Assembly: GCF_004118155.1 (NCBI RefSeq)
Contig: NZ_SAIQ01000001.1
Span: 806,001 to 870,000, forward strand
Direction of reading: 5' to 3'
Source of the DNA: Edaphocola flava
Lineage (GTDB): Bacteria; Bacteroidota; Bacteroidia; Chitinophagales; Chitinophagaceae
Length of the DNA: 64,000 bases
A program made the position numbers and the translations under genes. Under the pieces are notes generated by a model, which made no database searches, was not told where the DNA came from, and was given only the letters and a program-made list of their open reading frames with translations. The first letter of the stretch is position 1, and each line of letters opens with the position of its first letter. Below are positions 20,461 to 59,364 of the stretch, one piece after another.

Positions 20461-20500
20461 AAATGAAATAGGTCATCAACGTTGATGACCTATTTCATTT
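20461..20500. repeat. Perfect 40-bp palindrome
   Basis: The two 20-bp arms are exact reverse complements with no spacer; the centre is CAACGTTG. The flanking bases do not pair, so the palindrome is exactly 40 bp. It lies 213 bp past the stop of the barrel-like gene and 41 bp before the tRNA terminator. It may act as a terminator (the right arm ends in TTTCATTT), but the length and symmetry are unusual. Confidence 0.9.
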
Positions 20501-49658: not shown

Positions 49659-49697
49659 AAAAAGAGCGGCACGCAATTATTGCGTGCCGCTCTTTTA
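49659..49697 (+). terminator. Terminator of the type B cargo gene
   Basis: Perfect stem AAAAGAGCGGCACGCAA / TTGCGTGCCGCTCTTTT with a 4-nt loop, starting 19 bp after the stop. A second hairpin (49733-49762) follows and overlaps an FNR-like site. Confidence 0.9.
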
Positions 49698-49719: not shown

Positions 49720-49784
49720 TGACAAAAATCATAAAAGGGGCTGACATTCATCAGCCCCTTTTGCATTTGTGCCGGCTAATTTTG
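49720..49784 (+). promoter_or_regulatory. Promoter with two FNR/CRP-family sites for the hemerythrin-like gene and ccoI
   Basis: Two TGA-N6-TCA motifs lie at 49720-49731 and 49742-49753, centres 22 bp apart (two helical turns). A TAATTTTG -7 element lies at 49777-49784, its first base 29.5 bp from the second centre. If transcription starts near 49791, the second site is centred near -43, close to the class II activator position. The same layout recurs at 52776-52840. The second motif sits in a perfect hairpin (49733-49762), which could also act as a terminator for the upstream gene. Confidence 0.75.
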
Positions 49785-49804
49785 TATTCAAACGAAGCCG
49801 GTAT

Positions 49805-50299
49805 ATGAGCATTTCTTTTATCAACTTCAATTCTTTTTCCAAAAAAGAATTGTGCCAGTTTATCGTGCGGAGATGCTATGAGAATATGCGTAAAGCTATC
49901 CGGCGGATGGAGGCACATTATGTGCATGAGGACTTTGATACGGACCGCAATGATGACCTGGAGACCGCACTTCCCTTTATATTTCTACAGTTCAAGGAAT
50001 CCTGCGAACAGTTGATGCTATGGGAAGAGAAGCTTATACTTCCGTACTTCCAGGATCAGGATCATACACAGTCCAGATACCGGGCCAATACGATCCTGAA
50101 CCCTCATCTGCTCACCGTCAAACATGAAAAGCTGAAACAATTATATGATAAGATAAAGTTTCATAGTGTGCATGATGTACATCACCAGAATGAAACACTG
50201 TACCAGATAATGAGGTACGACCTGTTGCAAACCAATATACAACTGCTGGACTGGGAGTATCTGATACAGATACTCCTCTACAGCAAGCCAGTCCCTTAA
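49805..50299 (+). CDS. Putative hemerythrin-like helical protein, first gene of the cbb3 locus
   Basis: Start chosen at ATG 49805, which lies 20 bp past the -7 element; an upstream GTG at 49769 lies before the promoter and cannot be used. The 164-residue protein is all-helical and rich in His, Glu and Trp. Motifs W73-EEKLILPYF, VKHEKLKQLYDKI and LDWEYLIQILLY recall the H/E-xx-LFP and EHE patterns of hemerythrin-like RIC (YtfE) proteins, but several metal ligands are replaced, so binding is uncertain. Position before ccoI under an FNR-like promoter suggests a role in oxygen- or nitric-oxide-linked respiration. This is an inference. Confidence 0.5.
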   Translation: MSISFINFNSFSKKELCQFIVRRCYENMRKAIRRMEAHYVHEDFDTDRNDDLETALPFIFLQFKESCEQLMLWEEKLILPYFQDQDHTQSRYRANTILNPHLLTVKHEKLKQLYDKIKFHSVHDVHHQNETLYQIMRYDLLQTNIQLLDWEYLIQILLYSKPVP

Positions 50300-50336
50300 G
50301 ATCTCACCTGTCCTACTTCAACTCAAACAAAACAAC

Positions 50337-52760
50337 ATGGTGAACGAAACTGTATTGCAGACGGCTACGGCTACTGTTTGCTATCACTGCGGAGAAGATT
50401 GTCCCAACAACAGCATGCGGTATGATGATAAAGTATTTTGCTGCAGCGGTTGCCAGACCGTATACACCCTATTGCAGGAGAATGGCCTCTGCAATTATTA
50501 CAACCTGAACGAACATGCAGGTATTAACCGGAGAGAAGTCATCCGGAAAGATAAATTTGCGTTCCTGGAAGATCAGTCTATCCGGCAGGCGCTCATCCGG
50601 TTCAAAAACGAGGTCGAGACCCACGTAACGTTTTACATTCCCTACATACACTGCAGCAGCTGTATGTATCTCCTGGAGCAGCTATACCGGATTCATCCTG
50701 GTGTAATCCGTACCGATATCAACTTCCTTAAAAAAGAAGCAAGTATTATTTTCAATGAAAAGCAACTACCCCTGCGGGCTTTGGTAGAGCTGCTTACAGA
50801 ACTGGGGTATGAACCTCATCTCAGCCTGCAGCAAATGAAGCAGGAAAAGCCGAAAGTTAATCGCAGACTGGTTTACCGCCTGGGCGTTGCCGGATTTTGT
50901 TTCGGCAATATTATGCTGATGAGTTTCCCCGAATACTTCTCTGAAGATGTACAGCAGGAGGCTTACCTGGGCAGCATTTTCCGCTATCTTAATCTCGTGC
51001 TGGCACTACCTGTATTTTTCTATTGTTCTTCCATATTCCTGCTATCTGCCTGGAAAGGTTTAAAACATAAGCACATCAATATCGACTTCCCCGTTGCCAT
51101 AGCCATTGTAGCCACCTTCGGACGCAGTGTAGCCGATGTCCTTTTTCAACAGGGAGCCGGCTATTTCGATTCCCTTTCCGGCATCGTTTTCTTCATGCTC
51201 ATCGGTCGTGTGGTACAGGACAAGACATACGGCGCACTAAGCTTTGAGCGTGATTATACAGATTACTTTCCTATAGCTGCAACAGTAGTAAAAGACGGAC
51301 AGACAATTGCTCGTCCACTACCGGATATAAAGGCCGGTGATACGCTGAAAATACATAACAATGAACTGGTACCTGCCGATGGCATCCTGGTCAGGGGAAA
51401 GGCCCAGATAGATTATAGTTTCGTGACCGGGGAATCCGTTCCAGTACTGCCAGAAACGGGAGAGATCATCTATGCAGGAGGTAAACAGCTGGGTGCTGAT
51501 ATAGAACTGCTCACGGTCAAAGAAGTGGCCCAGAGCTACCTTACCGGTTTATGGAACAAAGAACACCAACAGGATGATGCCGCGATAAAAGCACATGAAA
51601 CGCAGTCTTTCGTACATAAACTTGCCACAAATTTTACCTGGATCGTACTGGCGATTGCATTCATTACCGGCCTATACTGGTGGGCTCATGATCCTGCCAA
51701 AATATGGCCTTCTGTCACTGCCATACTCATCATCGCCTGTCCCTGTGCACTGCTGCTGACCTCTACCTTTACAAGAGGCTATATCCTGCGCATATTGGGC
51801 CGAAACGGATTGTACCTGCGCAATGCACATGTAATCGAACCGCTGGGAAAATTAAACCACCTGGTGTTTGATAAAACCGGTACCCTGACTGCAGCAGAGC
51901 AGATTTCGGCTGCACACTACGGGCCCGAACTTACAATTGAAGAACAGCAGCTCATTGCCTCGCTCACCCACCCCACAACACATGCCATGAGCCGTCCGGT
52001 AAGGGCTATTCTTAACCACGATCACTTATACGAAGTCTTCGGCTTTCATGAATATCCCGGACTAGGCGTAAGTGGTACGGTTAATGGAAAAGAAGTCCGC
52101 ATCGGTACTGCCGGATTTATGCAAAGGAATGCGGAACACATTGCACAAAAGGGCACCATACTACTGATCACTATTGATGAAGAAGATAAAGGATATTTTG
52201 TCTTGACACAGGGCTTAAGAAAAGGAATAGAAGGCCTGCTGCACCGCTTACAAAAGTTGCTGCGTATCTCTATGCTTTCCGGCGATATGCCGCACCAGGC
52301 CAAACTGCTGCAACAGGTAGCCGGCCCGGATGTAAATCTGCGCTTCCAGCAGCAACCGCATGATAAGCTGGCTTATGTGCAGCAACTGCAACAGCAGGGC
52401 AAAACGGTGGGCATGATCGGGGACGGATTGAATGATGCCGGTGCCCTCAGGCAAAGTAATGTGGGCATTTGTATTGCAGAAGATACCAACTCCTTTACTC
52501 CGGCAGGAGATGCTATTCTGAAAGGCGCGCAGTTGCATATGCTGGACAAACTGATCCTGATGAGCAAGAGCAGCAGGCTGATCATTATCCTGTGTTTCAG
52601 TTTCTCGTTCCTCTACAATACCATCGGTTTAATCCTGGCGGTACAGGCCAGACTATCTCCTATTGCAGCCGCTATATTAATGCCCTGCAGTACCCTCAGT
52701 ATCATCTTACTGACCTATATCGTCAGTAAAATCCGCAGTAAAAAGCTGGGCCTGAAATAG
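50337..52760 (+). CDS. ccoI: Copper-transporting P1B-type ATPase CcoI/FixI
   Basis: The 807-residue protein has an N-terminal Cys-rich region (C15, C18, C22, C35, C36, C39) of the FixI type. An HMA-like metal-binding site follows (C106-S-S-C109). The ion-path motif C468-P-C470, the phosphorylation motif D512-KTGTLT, an HP-type motif (LTHPTTHAMS) and GDGLNDA with D696 are all present. It exports copper across the inner membrane for assembly of the cbb3 oxidase CuB centre. It starts 37 bp after the hemerythrin-like gene, so it belongs to the first FNR-like transcription unit. Confidence 0.95.
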   Translation: MVNETVLQTATATVCYHCGEDCPNNSMRYDDKVFCCSGCQTVYTLLQENGLCNYYNLNEHAGINRREVIRKDKFAFLEDQSIRQALIRFKNEVETHVTFYIPYIHCSSCMYLLEQLYRIHPGVIRTDINFLKKEASIIFNEKQLPLRALVELLTELGYEPHLSLQQMKQEKPKVNRRLVYRLGVAGFCFGNIMLMSFPEYFSEDVQQEAYLGSIFRYLNLVLALPVFFYCSSIFLLSAWKGLKHKHINIDFPVAIAIVATFGRSVADVLFQQGAGYFDSLSGIVFFMLIGRVVQDKTYGALSFERDYTDYFPIAATVVKDGQTIARPLPDIKAGDTLKIHNNELVPADGILVRGKAQIDYSFVTGESVPVLPETGEIIYAGGKQLGADIELLTVKEVAQSYLTGLWNKEHQQDDAAIKAHETQSFVHKLATNFTWIVLAIAFITGLYWWAHDPAKIWPSVTAILIIACPCALLLTSTFTRGYILRILGRNGLYLRNAHVIEPLGKLNHLVFDKTGTLTAAEQISAAHYGPELTIEEQQLIASLTHPTTHAMSRPVRAILNHDHLYEVFGFHEYPGLGVSGTVNGKEVRIGTAGFMQRNAEHIAQKGTILLITIDEEDKGYFVLTQGLRKGIEGLLHRLQKLLRISMLSGDMPHQAKLLQQVAGPDVNLRFQQQPHDKLAYVQQLQQQGKTVGMIGDGLNDAGALRQSNVGICIAEDTNSFTPAGDAILKGAQLHMLDKLILMSKSSRLIIILCFSFSFLYNTIGLILAVQARLSPIAAAILMPCSTLSIILLTYIVSKIRSKKLGLK

Positions 52761-52775
52761 GCACTAATCAAAGTA

Positions 52776-52840
52776 TGATAAAAGTCATATTCCGCTATGA
52801 GTATTGTCATAGAATAGTCGGGTAGCCGGGAATAATTTTG
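52776..52840 (+). promoter_or_regulatory. Promoter with two FNR/CRP-family sites for ccoS-ccoNO
   Basis: ATGATAAAAGTCAT and ATGAGTATTGTCAT are two TGA-N6-TCA pairs with centres at 52781.5 and 52803.5, exactly 22 bp apart. TAATTTTG at 52833-52840 starts 29.5 bp from the second centre. Spacings are identical to those at 49720-49784. Both sites here have extended symmetry (TATGA/TCATA). The ccoS start follows 16 bp after the -7 element. Inferred control: activation at low oxygen by an FNR-family regulator. No such regulator is encoded in the window. Confidence 0.82.
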
Positions 52841-52856
52841 TATAAATTTTAAGACA

Positions 52857-53015
52857 ATGAGCGTAATCATCATTTTACTGGGATTGAGCTTATGCGTGAG
52901 CATCGGCTTTCTCATTGCATTTATCTGGTCTGTAAAATCAGGTCAGCTGGAAGATGACTACTCTCCCGCACATAAAATATTCTTCGACGATAACCAGCCC
53001 GGAAACGTCCAATAA
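52857..53015 (+). CDS. ccoS: cbb3 oxidase maturation protein CcoS
   Basis: The 52-residue protein begins MSVIIILLGLSLCVSIGFLI, a single membrane helix, then WSVKSGQLEDDYSPAHKIFFD. The motif GQLEDDYSPAxKIFFDD is the hallmark of CcoS, needed to insert cofactors into cbb3 oxidase. It lies between the promoter at 52776-52840 and ccoNO, which starts 34 bp later, so it is the first gene of the second transcription unit. Confidence 0.95.
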   Translation: MSVIIILLGLSLCVSIGFLIAFIWSVKSGQLEDDYSPAHKIFFDDNQPGNVQ

Positions 53016-53049: not shown

Positions 53050-55227
53050 ATGAATAACGAAGCTATAGTACAAAACACTTCCGGCATGCAGGTAGAGAAA
53101 TTCTACTACGACAACAAGACGGTGAAAATGTTTGGTGTTGCAGCCATTTTCTGGGGCGTGATCGGTATGCTCGCAGGGGTTTACATTGCATTTGAACTGG
53201 CCTTCCCATCCTGGAATCTGGGTTGGGCCCCGATTACCTTTGGGCGCATGCGCCCTGTGCATACCAATGCAGTCATCTTTGCCTTCGTCGGCAACATTAT
53301 ATACATGGGTGTTTACTACTCCCTGCAACGCCTGCTGAAAGCGCGTATGTTCAGCGACAAACTCAGCAAGATCCACTTCTGGGGCTGGCAACTGATTATT
53401 CTTTTCGGCGCATTAAGCCTCTGGATGGGTTTTACACAAGGTAAAGAATACGCCGAACTGGAATGGCCGCTGGATATTGCCATCACACTCATCTGGGTAG
53501 TCTTCGGTATCAATATGTTTGGTACAATTCTGAAAAGAAGAGAGCGCCATCTGTATGTGGCTATCTGGTTCTATATCGGCACCTGGGTAGCTGTGGCTAT
53601 GCTGCATATTGTCAACTCATTTGCACTGCCCTACTCCGGTATGCATAGCTATAGCTGGTATGCTGGTGTACAGGACGGCCTGGTACAATGGTGGTACGGA
53701 CACAATGCGGTAGCTTTCTTCCTGACTACTCCATTCCTGGGTTTGATGTATTACTTCGTGCCTAAAGCGGCCGGCAGACCTGTTTATTCTTACCGCTGGT
53801 CTATTATCCACTTCTGGTCACTTATCTTCATTTATATCTGGGCCGGGCCACACCATCTGCTCAATACCGCATTACCCGGCTGGGCACAGTCTTTAGGTAC
53901 CGTCTTTTCCATCATGCTTATTGCACCCTCATGGGGTGGTATGCTCAATGGCTTACTGACGCTGAGAGGAGCATGGGATAAGGTAAGAGACGAACCTATT
54001 CTGAAGTTCTTTGTGGTAGCACTTACCTGCTACGGTATGGCTACATTTGAAGGTCCGATGCTGTCTCTGAAAAGTGTTAATGCCATCAGCCACTATACAG
54101 ACTGGACCATTGCACACGTACACGTTGGTGCGCTGGGCTGGAACGGATTCCTTGCCTTCGGCGCCATTTACTGGCTGTTCCCGAGATTGTACCGCACAGA
54201 ATTATTTTCCAAAAAACTGGCCAATACGCACTTCCTTATCGGCACCCTCGGCATCATCCTGTATGTAGTACCTATGTACTGGGCTGCACTGACACAATAC
54301 ATGATGTGGAAGCAGTTTACACCGGAAGGAACACTGAAATATCAGTTCATCGAAACAGTAACCAAAATTGTACCAATGTATGCCTTAAGGGGATTCGGTG
54401 GCCTGCTCTATGTTTCCGGAATATTCCTGCTGATATACAACATTGTCAAAACAGCTAAGAAAGGAAACTTCCTGGCTGAAGAAGAAGCCTTTGCCGCACC
54501 ATTACCAAAAGTAATGCCTAAGGTGGCCAAAGAGCACTGGCACAACTGGATCGAGCGCCGCCCTGTGCAAATGCTGGTATTGGCCCTGATCGCAGTCGCT
54601 ATCGGTGGTATTGTAGAGATGGTACCAACATTCCTGGTCAAATCAAATATTCCATCAATCACTTCTGTGAAACCCTATACCCCACTTGAGTTACACGGCC
54701 GTAACATTTATATCCGCGAAGGCTGTTATACCTGTCACTCCCAGATGATACGCCCATTCCGTCATGAAGTAGCCCGTTACGGAGATTATTCTAAAGCAGG
54801 TGAATTTGTGTATGATCATCCGTATCAATGGGGTTCTAAACGCACCGGACCGGATCTGGCCCGTATCGGCGGTAAATACCCGGACAGCTGGCATTACAAT
54901 CATATGCTGGAACCGGAAATGATGACCGCAGGCTCTATCATGCCGGCTTACCCATGGTTGTTCACCGATCGCATCGACAAAACCAAAACACCGGATATCA
55001 TCAATGCGATGACCAGACTGGGTGTGCCTTATCCTAAAGGATATGATGCTATCGCAAATGACGATCTGGAAAAGCAGGCCATGCAGATCAAAGAAAGCCT
55101 GGCGAAAGATAAAATAAACGTAAAAACAACTGATGAGATCGTAGCCCTGATCGCTTATCTGCAACGCATGGGTACAGACATCAAAAAAGATAACAGGGAT
55201 AGCCTGAATATGGCCGTACCGAATTAA
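53050..55227 (+). CDS. ccoN: cbb3-type cytochrome c oxidase, fused subunits I and II (CcoN-CcoO)
   Basis: Start at ATG 53050 (MNNEAIVQ); the ATG at 52954 lies inside ccoS. In the 725-residue protein, residues 1 to about 470 form subunit I with some 12 helices and the metal-site motifs GHNAVAFF, AGPHHLLN and WTIAHVHVGALGW (haem b and b3 ligands). A linker with one more helix (about 500-520) leads to CcoO, with the haem c motif C559-YTC562-H563 and the region RTGPDLARIGGKYPD. The fusion of CcoN and CcoO is typical of Bacteroidota. It reduces oxygen with high affinity at the inner membrane. Confidence 0.97.
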   Translation: MNNEAIVQNTSGMQVEKFYYDNKTVKMFGVAAIFWGVIGMLAGVYIAFELAFPSWNLGWAPITFGRMRPVHTNAVIFAFVGNIIYMGVYYSLQRLLKARMFSDKLSKIHFWGWQLIILFGALSLWMGFTQGKEYAELEWPLDIAITLIWVVFGINMFGTILKRRERHLYVAIWFYIGTWVAVAMLHIVNSFALPYSGMHSYSWYAGVQDGLVQWWYGHNAVAFFLTTPFLGLMYYFVPKAAGRPVYSYRWSIIHFWSLIFIYIWAGPHHLLNTALPGWAQSLGTVFSIMLIAPSWGGMLNGLLTLRGAWDKVRDEPILKFFVVALTCYGMATFEGPMLSLKSVNAISHYTDWTIAHVHVGALGWNGFLAFGAIYWLFPRLYRTELFSKKLANTHFLIGTLGIILYVVPMYWAALTQYMMWKQFTPEGTLKYQFIETVTKIVPMYALRGFGGLLYVSGIFLLIYNIVKTAKKGNFLAEEEAFAAPLPKVMPKVAKEHWHNWIERRPVQMLVLALIAVAIGGIVEMVPTFLVKSNIPSITSVKPYTPLELHGRNIYIREGCYTCHSQMIRPFRHEVARYGDYSKAGEFVYDHPYQWGSKRTGPDLARIGGKYPDSWHYNHMLEPEMMTAGSIMPAYPWLFTDRIDKTKTPDIINAMTRLGVPYPKGYDAIANDDLEKQAMQIKESLAKDKINVKTTDEIVALIAYLQRMGTDIKKDNRDSLNMAVPN

Positions 55228-55441: not shown

Positions 55442-56623
55442 ATGAGAAAAATATTATCACTAATCGCCCTTACAGCCCCTAATATATTGTGGGCCGCAGA
55501 CCCAGCCCCAGTCGCAGCAAGTGCAGGTCCGGAAAGTCCATGGGCAGCCCTGGCCAATCCTGTAGCCATCATCATGGTCACTATACTGATCGTACTGCTC
55601 TTCGTTATTATTTTCCTGAGCCGTATTGTACTGAACTCCCTGGAGTTTTACAAGGCTAAACGGCAGGCCGAAAAAAGCAAAAGCAATAGTAGTGCACTGA
55701 CGGCAATATTAATCCCACTACTCCTGTTCTCCGGCCTGAATGCCTTTGCACAGACAGCCGATGAGGCTGCCGAAGCCGCGCCCAAAGCTGTGGAGCTGAT
55801 CGGAGGCATGAACCCTACATTGTTCTATACGCTTTTTGGTGTGTTTATCCTGGAAGTGGTGGTCATTATTGTCCTGCTTTCTGTAACCCGCTTCCTGGTT
55901 GGCCTGGAGCGCAAGAAAGAGCATAAGAAAGAAAAAGGGATCAGCTGGTGGGAAAAAATGAATGCCACCAAATCACTGGATGCCGCCTCAGAAGCAGAGG
56001 CCAACTGGGGGCATAGTTATGATGGCATTGAGGAGCTGGACAATCCTACACCACCCTGGTGGGTAGCAGGCTTTGCCCTCTCTGTCATTGTAGGGGTCAT
56101 ATACTTCTACCGCTATGATATTGCTAAAACGGCTCCGAACCAATTGGAAGAATATGCGATTGAGGTACAGAAAGGAGAAGCTGCCAAGCTGGCCTACCTT
56201 GCTTCTGCTGCCAATAATGTAGATGAGAATACCGTAACGGCATTGACTGAAGCAACAGATATTGAAGCCGGAAAAGCAGTATTTGTACAGGTATGTGCAG
56301 CCTGCCACGGAGCAGATGGCGGTGGTAGTGTAGGACCAAACCTCACAGATGACTACTGGCTGCATGGCGGTGGTATCAAAGACATCTTCCGCACCATTAC
56401 AGTCGGCGTTCAGGATAAGGGAATGAAATCCTGGAAAGATGATTACTCACCAAGACAGATTCAGCAAATTGCCAGCTATATTAAAACACTGCATGGCACC
56501 AAACCCGCGACACCAAAAGCTTCGCAAGGAGAGTTGTATATAGAGGAAAGCAAAGAAAACGGTGCACAAGCCACAGCAGCTCATGGGACAGCTGCTGCAG
56601 CGGACAGTACATCAGTACAGTAA
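55442..56623 (+). CDS. ccoP: cbb3 oxidase subunit III CcoP (mono-haem)
   Basis: The 393-residue protein has hydrophobic N-terminal stretches at about 5-17, 35-57, 90-103 and 125-145, then the CcoP N-domain region PPWWVAGFALSVIVGVIYFYRYD and one cytochrome c domain. The only haem c motif is C285-AAC288-H289 (VCAACHGADGGG), with a likely Met ligand in KGMKSW. Proteobacterial CcoP has two haem domains, so this is the short, single-haem form seen in Bacteroidota. It passes electrons from cytochrome c to CcoO. Confidence 0.95.
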   Translation: MRKILSLIALTAPNILWAADPAPVAASAGPESPWAALANPVAIIMVTILIVLLFVIIFLSRIVLNSLEFYKAKRQAEKSKSNSSALTAILIPLLLFSGLNAFAQTADEAAEAAPKAVELIGGMNPTLFYTLFGVFILEVVVIIVLLSVTRFLVGLERKKEHKKEKGISWWEKMNATKSLDAASEAEANWGHSYDGIEELDNPTPPWWVAGFALSVIVGVIYFYRYDIAKTAPNQLEEYAIEVQKGEAAKLAYLASAANNVDENTVTALTEATDIEAGKAVFVQVCAACHGADGGGSVGPNLTDDYWLHGGGIKDIFRTITVGVQDKGMKSWKDDYSPRQIQQIASYIKTLHGTKPATPKASQGELYIEESKENGAQATAAHGTAAAADSTSVQ

Positions 56624-56734: not shown

Positions 56735-58132
56735 ATGGCATTTATTAAAGAGAGTGAACACTCTTTCAGAGACGAGTTATCAACCATAGATGAAAAAGGC
56801 AAACGTAAGTGGATCTATCCTTCAAAACCAAAAGGAAAATTCACCACTGCACGCTATTACCTGAGTTACCTGTATTATGCACTGTTCTTCGGTCTTCCGC
56901 TAATACATATTCATGGACATCCGCTATTGCAATTCAATATTCCGGAAGGTAAGTTCATTATTTTCGGCACCATATTCTGGCCCCAGGATTTTTTCATTTT
57001 CGGGCTCATCATGGTTGCGGCCATCCTTTCGATTGCCCTGTTTACCATGGCATATGGCCGTATTTTCTGCGGATGGATCTGTCCGCAAACTATATTCATG
57101 GAAACTCTTTTTCGCCGTATCGAATATGCAATTGACGGCGACGCCGCGCAGCAGCGTATCCTGAAAAAACAAACCTGGACCACTACAAAAATTATTAAAA
57201 GAGTCCTTAAACAAAGTCTCTTCATTGCACTATCCTTCCTGATCGCAAATACTTTTCTGGCCTACATCATCGGCACAAAATCATTGCTTAAAATCATGAG
57301 CGAACCGGTAATGCAGCATGTCGGCGGCTTCATGGCCATACTGTTATTTACGGGGGTATTCTACGGAGTATTTGCCTACATGCGCGAACTGATATGTACG
57401 AACATCTGTCCCTACGGAAGGCTGCAAAGTGTACTGCTCGATAAGGATTCTATAGTAGTGGCCTATGATTATAAAAGAGGCGAGCCCCGTGCCAAATTCC
57501 GTAAAGAACAGGGAGATGCCGGTGATTGTATTGACTGTCTGCAATGTGTGCGGGTATGCCCTACCGGTATTGACATCCGGAATGGTACACAACTGGAGTG
57601 TATTAATTGCACTGCTTGTATTGATGCCTGTGATGCTATGATGGTAAACATAAAACGCGATACCGGCCTGATCCGGTATGCATCTGAAAGCAATATTGCA
57701 GAAGGCAAAAAAAGTGTTTTCACGTTAAAGCTAAAAGTATATACCAGTATCCTGGCCATTATTATGATCGGCATTACAGTGCTGCTTGTAAAGAGTAAAA
57801 ACGTAGATGGAAATATCATCCGTTCCGCGGGCATGCTATTTCAGGAACGCGGTACAGACAGCATTTCAAACCTGTACAATGCCAAATTTATCAACAAAAC
57901 ATTTGACCGTTTCGACCTTAGTCTGAAGCTGGAAGACCGGAAAGGGTATATACAGATGGTAGGTAAGGAACAGATCGGCATGCGCCCGGAAAGCCAGGGC
58001 AGTACTAATTTCTTCATCGTACTACCTCGTACAGAAATCCGCAACCGGAAGGAGAAACTAAAAATCGGTGTATACGAAAACGGGAAACTGGTCATGTACC
58101 TGCATACTACTTTCCTCGGACCAATGTCCTGA
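56735..58132 (+). CDS. ccoG: cbb3 oxidase accessory ferredoxin CcoG
   Basis: The 465-residue protein of the FixG/RdxA family has about five membrane helices and a di-cluster 4Fe-4S domain with C265-xx-C268-xx-C271-xxx-C275-P and a second set CINCTACIDAC. CcoG reduces Cu(II) to Cu(I) for assembly of the cbb3 oxidase. The C-terminal part (about 345-465) is an Ig-like FixG domain. It follows ccoP by 111 bp and precedes ccoH by 34 bp. Confidence 0.96.
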   Translation: MAFIKESEHSFRDELSTIDEKGKRKWIYPSKPKGKFTTARYYLSYLYYALFFGLPLIHIHGHPLLQFNIPEGKFIIFGTIFWPQDFFIFGLIMVAAILSIALFTMAYGRIFCGWICPQTIFMETLFRRIEYAIDGDAAQQRILKKQTWTTTKIIKRVLKQSLFIALSFLIANTFLAYIIGTKSLLKIMSEPVMQHVGGFMAILLFTGVFYGVFAYMRELICTNICPYGRLQSVLLDKDSIVVAYDYKRGEPRAKFRKEQGDAGDCIDCLQCVRVCPTGIDIRNGTQLECINCTACIDACDAMMVNIKRDTGLIRYASESNIAEGKKSVFTLKLKVYTSILAIIMIGITVLLVKSKNVDGNIIRSAGMLFQERGTDSISNLYNAKFINKTFDRFDLSLKLEDRKGYIQMVGKEQIGMRPESQGSTNFFIVLPRTEIRNRKEKLKIGVYENGKLVMYLHTTFLGPMS

Positions 58133-58166: not shown

Positions 58167-58649
58167 ATGGAATACCAAGTCAAAACAAAAAAGCCATACG
58201 GCTTCTGGAATTGGGGTACTATACTCACCTTTGTTTTTATCCTCGGGGCTTCAGGCATCATCTTCATGGTGTACCGCTCACAGCAAATGTCTGCAGAGCT
58301 GGTTACAGACAATTATTATGCAGAGGAATTGCAATTTCAAAAAAAGATAGACGCACGTACCGCAGCCAATACCCTATCCCGCAAAGTGGCTATTGAATAT
58401 ATCAATGCACAGCATGCAATCGTGGTATCCTTCCCGCAGGAGTGCCTGAAAGAACATATAAAAGGCCATATCTATTTCTACAATCCTGCCAGTGGCAAAC
58501 AGGATCGCATTATTCCCATCGCTATGGATGCACAAGGCTTGCAGGTGATCGCCGCAGACAAGATCGACAAAGGCACCTATTCTGTGCAGGTGGAGTGGAG
58601 CATGAATGACAAGGCTTTCAGTACGGATGTTCCGTTTACCAAACTATAG
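58167..58649 (+). CDS. ccoH: cbb3 oxidase assembly protein CcoH/FixH
   Basis: Start at ATG 58167 (MEYQVKTKKPYGFWNWG); an earlier ATG at 58068 lies inside ccoG. The 160-residue protein has one membrane helix (about 15-35, TILTFVFILGASGIIFMVY) and a periplasmic beta domain. FixH is needed for stable cbb3 assembly. The motif YAEELQFQKKIDA is typical of the family. It lies between ccoG and the TauE-like gene, as in other Bacteroidota. Confidence 0.92.
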   Translation: MEYQVKTKKPYGFWNWGTILTFVFILGASGIIFMVYRSQQMSAELVTDNYYAEELQFQKKIDARTAANTLSRKVAIEYINAQHAIVVSFPQECLKEHIKGHIYFYNPASGKQDRIIPIAMDAQGLQVIAADKIDKGTYSVQVEWSMNDKAFSTDVPFTKL

Positions 58650-58653
58650 CGAT

Positions 58654-59364
58654 ATGTACACCGCAATTATTTTTTCCGCATTGGCAATGGGTTTCCTGGG
58701 TAGTTTTCACTGTATCGGTATGTGTGGCCCACTGGCCTTATCGCTTCCGGTACAGCACCTCAGCGGATGGAGGCGATGGATGGGTATACTCCTTTACAAT
58801 CTCGGACGCATCAGTACCTATGCTATACTGGGTTTACTACTGGGCCTGATCAGCACACAATTTTCATTCTTCGGCTGGCAGCAAAAAATATCGGTAATAC
58901 TGGGTTCTGCGATGATCGGCTACCTGCTCTACAGCTTGTTGGCAGGAAGAAAAACCGGCAGAAAAGCCATACAACTCCCCTGGCAGAAAAATGTGCTGCA
59001 AGCCCTGGGCCGATTATATGCTCATAAAAAAAGCTACACCCTTTTCTTAATTGGGCTGCTCAATGGTTTATTACCCTGCGGCATGGTCTATATGGCCCTT
59101 ACCGCAGCCTTTGCACTGGGCAGCCATCAGCAGGCAGCTGCGTTTATGGCGGCCTTCGGTGCCGGTACATTACCGGCCATGGCAGGTATCGGTTACCTGG
59201 GTAGTATGATCAGTCTTAATTTACGCAACAAGATCCGTCGTGCAGGACCTTATCTGGCAGGCTTTATGGGGCTACTGCTCGTCCTTCGTGGTCTGAATCT
59301 GGGCATTCCCTACCTGAGTCCGGAAATCAGGGAGCAAAAGGTGAGTTGCTGCAGCCCGAAATAA
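58654..59364 (+). CDS. SafE/TauE-like (urease accessory UreH-type) membrane protein
   Basis: Start at ATG 58654, 4 bp after ccoH. The 236-residue protein has six predicted membrane helices and begins with GFLGSFHCIGMCGPLALSLP, whose Cys and Met residues mark the sulfite exporter TauE/SafE family (UreH-like). The second repeat has LLPCGMVYMAL. In cbb3 loci, homologues of this type are linked to copper or haem handling for the oxidase. The end has CC in KVSCCSPK. It is the last gene of the cbb3 run. Confidence 0.9.
   Translation: MYTAIIFSALAMGFLGSFHCIGMCGPLALSLPVQHLSGWRRWMGILLYNLGRISTYAILGLLLGLISTQFSFFGWQQKISVILGSAMIGYLLYSLLAGRKTGRKAIQLPWQKNVLQALGRLYAHKKSYTLFLIGLLNGLLPCGMVYMALTAAFALGSHQQAAAFMAAFGAGTLPAMAGIGYLGSMISLNLRNKIRRAGPYLAGFMGLLLVLRGLNLGIPYLSPEIREQKVSCCSPK

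What the first reader, a model, noticed from the sequence alone, without database searches (positions are those of the whole stretch)
49720..52840. Two cbb3 promoters with the same double FNR-like architecture
At 49720-49784 and at 52776-52840 I see two TGA-N6-TCA pairs with centres exactly 22 bp apart, then TAATTTTG starting 29.5 bp from the second centre. TGA-N6-TCA alone is expected about 16 times in 64 kb, but two pairs with the same three spacings at both cbb3 transcription units is not a chance pattern I would expect. The second pair would sit near -43, close to the class II activator position. Two sites in phase, two turns apart, suggest cooperative binding of an FNR/CRP-family dimer. 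One caution: the second site at 49742 also lies in a hairpin whose symmetry could create the motif.
Basis: partly seen in the sequence, partly recalled or inferred. Interest (0 to 1): 0.75.

Follow-up and report, generated by a model that had tools for sequence, protein, structure and literature searches.

The report
Tandem FNR-type switch for cbb3 oxidase
Both promoters of this bacterium's low-oxygen respiratory enzyme carry the same rigid pair of regulator-binding sites, a layout found in many related bacteria, which probably lets a familiar kind of oxygen-response activator work in an unusual double arrangement.

Summary
Both cbb3 promoters carry TGA-N6-TCA, N10, TGA-N6-TCA, N23, TAATTTTG. 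Of 79 family genomes, 51 have the element (reversed control 0 of 79); 95 of 114 copies have exactly 23 nt before the -7 element. It stands at ccoS in 52 of 54 assessable family genomes: 30 strict, 22 with one to three letters off. TAnnTTTG lies at -12 to -5 in a mapped flavobacterium, so the sites centre at -41.5 (class II position) and -63.5. The likely reader is a cysteine-bearing FNR-like protein encoded about 145 kb away. In relatives boxes often lie beside genes for such proteins or for receiver-CRP fusions. Flavobacteriales mostly have only the proximal site (18 of 21); Chitinophagaceae (8 of 11), Sphingobacteriia (10 of 17) and Cytophagia (6 of 8) have the pair. In pairs the distal site is intact and the proximal often decayed, hinting that the distal dimer helps. 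Activation, oxygen response, regulator identity and cooperativity are inferred. New variant of a known kind.

The parts
49720..49731 (+). distal FNR/CRP-type site TGACAAAAATCA, promoter 1 (inferred centre -63.5)
   Evidence: same place in G001 and G003
49742..49753 (+). proximal site TGACATTCATCA, promoter 1 (inferred centre -41.5)
49735..49760 (+). G+C-rich hairpin over the proximal site; only a shorter, weaker stem in G003
49777..49784 (+). -7 element TAATTTTG, promoter 1
49805..50299 (+). first gene of unit 1, 164 aa, no Pfam match; ATG 20 nt after the -7 element
50337..52760 (+). ccoI, copper P-type ATPase of cbb3 assembly
52776..52787 (+). distal site TGATAAAAGTCA, promoter 2
52798..52809 (+). 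proximal site TGAGTATTGTCA, promoter 2
52833..52840 (+). -7 element TAATTTTG, promoter 2
52857..53015 (+). ccoS; ATG 16 nt after the -7 element
53050..55227 (+). fused ccoN-ccoO
55442..56623 (+). ccoP
56735..58132 (+). ccoG
58167..58649 (+). ccoH (FixH)
58606..59364 (+). DsbD_2-type membrane protein after ccoH
49660..49696 (+). intrinsic-terminator-like hairpin downstream of the preceding gene

Best explanation
Each of the two cco transcription units (ORF-ccoI; ccoS-ccoNO-ccoP-ccoG-ccoH) starts at a promoter with a Bacteroidota -7 element and, where a -33 element would lie, a binding site for a CRP/FNR-family dimer centred at -41.5 (class II activation), plus a second dimer site two helical turns upstream at -63.5. 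Low oxygen would make it bind both sites and recruit RNA polymerase; the distal dimer probably stabilises the proximal one. Shown: the sequence, its spacing, its conservation, its linkage to regulator genes in relatives. Inferred: that it activates, that oxygen is the signal, that this protein binds, that binding is cooperative, and that each unit is one transcript.
For: Spacing: 95 of 114 boxes have gap 23, 12 have 24, 5 have 22, 1 each 25 and 26 (20-26 allowed). Single-site scan of 9 genomes: of the 150 rows listed out of 204 matches (reversed control 66), 68 are at gap 23, 19 at 22, 15 at 24, 2-11 at each other gap; strict pairs included. Reversed control 0 of 79 and 0 of 395. ccoS promoter: 52 of 54. 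For 99 of 114 boxes with a gene start within 170 nt, the ATG is a median 23 nt after the -7 element. Downstream genes include cco, hemN, ferrochelatase, cytochrome c proteins, Rrf2, Usp. Genomes with a regulator match have boxes in 50 of 69, those without in 1 of 10, Fisher p 2.5e-4. Out of family, the box lies within 2 kb of a gene matching the FNR-like query at 1e-20 in 17 of 21 genomes. TAnnTTTG at -12 to -5 (PMC9723704, passages).
Against: The own FNR-like gene is about 145 kb from cco and its promoter has no box. It scores 101.6 bits, below NCBIfam's Fnr cut-off of 228. Other CRP-like proteins of the genome also have Glu and Arg in the recognition helix and are not excluded by the helix alone. 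Of 39 gap-23 sites outside strict pairs only 6 have 5 of 6 distal letters, so the pair is not required everywhere. Regulator matches occur in 19 genomes without a strict box. Two of five congeners lack the strict element.
Confidence: 0.8

Rival explanations
1. The sites are read by another CRP/FNR-type protein of the genome (one of the small Bacteroidota CRP-like proteins L033-L037, L040, or L032), not by the cysteine-bearing one.
For: Several carry ESLSR or ETLSR in the recognition helix (by eye); the FNR-like gene is not near cco here.
Against: In relatives boxes and cco often sit beside genes of the FNR-like class or the receiver-CRP class; within the family the read examples of both classes share G[TI]ATE[ST]xIR or close variants. 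L032 has GTARVVVSR, without the Glu. Co-occurrence of boxes with the small CRP-like proteins was not tested.
Confidence: 0.15
2. Only the proximal site works (plain class II promoter); the distal site is a leftover or serves another purpose.
For: Flavobacteriales cco promoters mostly have only the proximal site (18 of 21: 17 at 23 nt, one at 24); single-site gap-23 promoters occur in the family too.
Against: In the 36 tandem cco promoters the distal site is 6 of 6 in all while the proximal is below 6 in 22; the reverse pattern appears once (L381). In the 22 non-strict family promoters the distal is perfect in all and the proximal below 6 in 14. A dead site would not be the better kept one.
Confidence: 0.12
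3. The pairs repress rather than activate.
For: There are no expression data here.
Against: The fixed 29.5 bp from centre to -7 element is the class II activator distance (recalled); a repressor needs no such fixed distance. cbb3 oxidase rises at low oxygen in F. psychrophilum (PMC9723704, passages).
Confidence: 0.05
4. The second site of promoter 1 is only the stem of a terminator hairpin.
For: Hairpin at 49735-49760, -17.2 kcal/mol, z -4.6; a weaker stem is left in G003. By eye, the proximal site of promoter 2 also extends to CTATGA...TCATAG.
Against: Site and spacings are kept in G003 although the G+C arms are gone; the box recurs at the same spacing in many genomes with unrelated letters around it.
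Confidence: 0.03

Closest known systems
Class II CRP/FNR-dependent promoters (E. coli; geometry recalled, not from a call)
   Same: activator dimer centred at -41.5, 29.5 bp from the first T of the -10/-7 element, no separate -35 element needed
   Different: sigma factor element TAnnTTTG; a second dimer site exactly 22 bp upstream, closer than the E. coli tandem sites that I recall
FNR, oxygen sensor (PDB chains named FNR type regulator, e.g. 9qlt, 5cvr)
   Same: cNMP-binding and Crp HTH domains, N-terminal Cys cluster and central Cys, Glu and Arg in the recognition helix
   Different: C-x2-C-x8-C instead of C-x2-C-x5-C and Ile for Ser in the recognition helix (alignment); below the curated Fnr cut-off
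HcpR/HcpR2 regulators, with members in Bacteroides and Porphyromonas (PMC1274295)
   Same: CRP/FNR family; the closest PDB chain is 2gau, a Crp/Fnr regulator that I recall as the P. gingivalis protein
   Different: HcpR proteins lack the FNR Cys motif, and the common HcpR2 site is GTAACnnnnGTTAC, P. gingivalis differing (passages of PMC1274295)
Receiver-CRP/FNR fusions of Bacteroidota (class B here)
   Same: similar recognition helix (e.g. GTATESTIRTLSDL in the family, GMATETVSRTLSDF outside) and the same boxes nearby in relatives
   Different: no match in the window's own genome, where the only match at 1e-10 is the FNR-like protein itself

Membership tests
Class II CRP/FNR promoter | dimer site centred at -41.5 | tested here: met
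   29.5 bp from centre to TAnnTTTG, which lies at -12 to -5 in F. psychrophilum; own start sites not mapped
Class II CRP/FNR promoter | fixed distance to the -7 element across targets | tested here: met
   95 of 114 at 23 nt
Class II CRP/FNR promoter | activation by contact with RNA polymerase | not testable with these tools
   needs transcription assays
FNR | cNMP-binding plus Crp-type HTH domains | tested here: met
FNR | N-terminal Cys cluster and central Cys as cluster ligands | tested here: met
   own protein has the residues; of 33 class A candidates given to, 26 were printed before it stopped with an error: CxxC in 25, a third Cys in 16, central Cys in 26. That they bind a cluster is not shown
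FNR | curated NCBIfam Fnr score | tested here: not met
   101.6 bits against cut-off 228; so FNR-like, not filed as Fnr
FNR | TTGAT-N4-ATCAA consensus (recalled) | tested here: not met
   95 boxes: T before the first TGA in 20% only; TGA and TCA themselves were fixed by the search pattern
FNR | oxygen-labile [4Fe-4S] cluster | not testable with these tools
   needs purified protein
HcpR/HcpR2 | no FNR Cys motif; HcpR2 sites GTAACnnnnGTTAC | tested here: not met
   Cys present, sites differ; definition from passages of PMC1274295

The most novel reading that the evidence does not exclude
One promoter code for low-oxygen respiration across much of the phylum: a proximal CRP/FNR site at exactly -41.5, to which Chitinophagaceae, Sphingobacteriia and Cytophagia add a second dimer two turns upstream as a cooperative switch, letting the proximal half-site decay (often TGA to TAA). 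The same code is read by two interchangeable sensor types with similar recognition helices, a cysteine-bearing FNR-like protein and a phospho-receiver fused to a CRP/FNR domain, so the input signal was swapped while the DNA code stayed.
Probability: 0.5. Interest if true: 0.68.

Novelty: new variant of a known kind. Interest (0 to 1): 0.57.

Why it matters
I saw no paper that describes how Bacteroidota switch on cbb3 oxidase or other low-oxygen genes through such sites. This rests on the listings of ten searches of open-licence papers, several cut to the first 10-15 titles, and on passages of two papers. A rule this strict lets low-oxygen regulons be read from genomes, and it offers a natural case in which two sensor types may share one DNA code.

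Tried and rejected
Chance: rejected; with the looser pattern (spacer 0-30, gap 18-28) the reversed control has 4 hits. Terminator hairpin as the source of the motif: unlikely, since G003 keeps the site without the G+C arms, though a weaker stem remains. The third pair at 20464-20497: not a member, a perfect palindrome without a -7 element. A 24-nt gap in my first genome pattern gave nothing in 5 genomes; this was my counting error, corrected. Alignment of the 164-aa ORF with nine proteins at the same place in relatives gave 9-49% identity to it, and Pfam gave no match above cut-off.

Dropped or unassessed rows: one row (G050), cut in the listing, was left out. L044 was mis-framed and read rightly. 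In one search, 7 of 43 loci gave no ccoS frame (G005, G012, G017, G019, G026, G056, G067); six were done without shuffles, and G019 has the strict box. The first G056 stretch lay on the wrong side of ccoO; the right one was fetched. G062 could not be assessed (contig end). Listings were cut by the tool. The 20 downstream proteins under 100 aa, 17 of them CcoS-like by eye, were not scanned, and longer ones were cut at 320 aa. Named loci were grouped by record title. Genomes are related, so counts are not independent events.
Full report
What is there. The window holds a cbb3 oxidase cluster: a 164-aa ORF and ccoI, then ccoS, fused ccoNO, ccoP, ccoG, ccoH and a DsbD_2 protein. In front of each of the two units stands TGA-N6-TCA, 10 nt, TGA-N6-TCA, 23 nt, TAATTTTG. 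The ATG follows 20 and 16 nt later. A third pair at 20464-20497 is a palindrome without a -7 element.

Is it more than chance. In 79 family genomes 51 have the pair with TAnnTTTG 20-26 nt downstream; the reversed control pattern has none. Among the 114 distinct boxes in the loci held (not every row was fetched), the gap is 23 in 95, 24 in 12, 22 in 5, 25 in 1 and 26 in 1. When the spacer between the two sites was left free from 0 to 30, 57 of 79 genomes had a match and the control 4 hits; the listed rows with another spacer that could be parsed number 25, eight of them at 11 (listing cut by the tool). Apart from the letters fixed by the pattern, mainly positions next to them deviate from background. 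Across 395 genomes of the phylum 30 have the strict element, control 0.

At the cco genes. ccoO was found in 60 of 79 genomes, with E below 1e-85 in 55; one of these (G062) is cut by a contig end. Of the 54 others, 30 have the strict box about 1.7 kb upstream of ccoO, that is at ccoS. Of the remaining 24, 22 have the same box with one to three of 18 letters off and gap 23. The two without are G035, which has no match to the regulator at 1e-10, and G068, whose nearest box found is about 5 kb upstream in front of hemN. One search used a weight matrix trained on 73 boxes from other loci: of 43 loci given, 36 had a readable ccoS, 34 of these with 0 of 200 shuffles reaching the score; the other two are G035 (40 of 200) and G068 (158 of 200). 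Congeners: G001 is identical at both promoters, G003 has both boxes, G002 has no match and G004 only an unrelated one at up to 2 mismatches. G002 and G004 have CcoN 75% identical and keep at both promoters a perfect distal site, a degenerate proximal site and GA for TA in the -7 element, at the same spacings.

Named loci. In 79 of 80 named cco loci long enough to test: Flavobacteriales 18 of 21 with one perfect site at the proximal position (17 at 23 nt, one at 24), 2 tandem, 1 unclear; Chitinophagaceae 8 of 11 tandem, 3 unclear; Sphingobacteriia 10 of 17 tandem (4 with weak proximal), 1 single, 6 unclear; Cytophagia 6 of 8 tandem, 1 single, 1 unclear; unassigned MAGs 10 of 13 tandem; Bacteroidales 0 of 3; other phyla and Ignavibacteria 0 of 6. 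The single-site calls rest on position as well as score, since for some of them shuffles reach the same total (up to 16 of 40, L413). As a group they are clear: over all 80 loci, 32 perfect sites lie at gap 23 from a -7 element with at least 5 of 6 letters, against at most 2 at any other gap from 10 to 35; the reversed control gives 24 spread hits, one at 23.

Position. In F. psychrophilum TAnnTTTG occupies -12 to -5 (PMC9723704, passages read). The proximal site is then centred at -41.5 and the distal at -63.5. This is the class II distance known from E. coli (recalled).

Who reads it. The own genome has 10 matches to the Crp-type HTH family at E 0.01, two above the cut-off. With the FNR-like protein as query, only itself matches at 1e-10. 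It has CPDDNCNNC...C and a Cys in the stretch that aligns with VCEIP of FNR chains (C122 in E. coli numbering, recalled). Its closest solved relative is 2gau (E 8e-41); other CRP/FNR chains, FNR among them, follow from about 7e-21. In relatives two classes appear: the cysteine-bearing class A and receiver-CRP fusions, class B. Within the family the read examples of both mostly have G[TI]ATE[ST]xIR; outside it class B varies, for instance GMATETVSR. Either is often near cco or a box; in G024 a box lies 43 nt upstream of the ATG of a class A gene that itself lacks CxxC. Out of the family, 17 of 21 genomes with a box have it within 2 kb of a gene matching the query at 1e-20; G112, G231, G139 and G130 do not. 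In G346 and G379 the gene within 2 kb is a second, 231-aa relative; their class A gene is about 2.3 kb away. Family genomes with a regulator match have boxes in 50 of 69, those without in 1 of 10; the match counts any close CRP/FNR protein.

What it controls. 99 of 114 boxes have a gene start within 170 nt; the median distance from -7 element to ATG is 23 nt. Of the 79 such proteins of 100 aa or more, 11 match cytochrome c, 4 Rrf2, 4 pyridoxamine-oxidase-like, 4 YceI, 3 Usp, 3 the CcoI metal-binding domain, 2 hemN, 1 ferrochelatase. By eye, not by model, several are followed by NosZ-like proteins. No background set was scanned, so enrichment is not claimed. In six genomes (G016, G023, G025, G139, G379, G452) one 34-bp pair serves two divergent promoters with -7 elements 23-24 nt away on both sides.

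How it most likely works. The proximal dimer makes a class II contact and the distal dimer, on the same face two turns away, holds it in place. The best hint is asymmetry: among tandem cco promoters the distal site is perfect in 36 of 36 and the proximal below 6 letters in 22, with one reverse case, L381. My tandem class admits a weak proximal more readily than a weak distal site, so the reverse case was counted apart. Single-site promoters at gap 23 also exist in the family: of 39 examined, 6 have 5 of 6 distal letters at the 10-nt spacer against at most 1 at any other spacer from 0 to 36. Activation, oxygen as the signal, and cooperativity remain to be shown.

Known or new. Class II activation by FNR/CRP proteins is known, as is FNR-type control of cbb3 oxidase in proteobacteria (recalled). 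I saw no account of this element in Bacteroidota in the searches listed under why it matters. I rate it a new variant of a known kind.

Noticed in passing
20464-20497: Perfect palindrome TGAAATAGGTCATCAACGTTGATGACCTATTTCA near three tRNA genes; folds at -24.5 kcal/mol, z -8.1; happens to match the double-site pattern.
   Followed up: partly
49805-50299: 164-aa ORF at the head of the ccoI unit, without Pfam match; nine relatives have an ORF of similar size at the same place with 9-49% identity to it.
   Followed up: partly
G016:C308, G023:C106, G025:C1:1378362, G139:C11, G379:C23, G452:C16: One 34-bp pair shared by two divergent promoters, each with its own -7 element 23-24 nt away.
   Followed up: partly
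L311 (G000:C1:1003000-1009000): The own FNR-like gene follows a 614-aa frame that looks like cytochrome oxidase subunit I (recognised by eye, no family search), not cco as in many relatives.
   Followed up: no
L309, L310 (G002, G004): Both cco promoters of these congeners have GA instead of TA at the start of the -7 element.
   Followed up: no
L316-L320 (G346, G379): A genus outside the window's class has 6 and 9 boxes with the same geometry, one in front of a CcoI-like gene (recognised by eye).
   Followed up: partly
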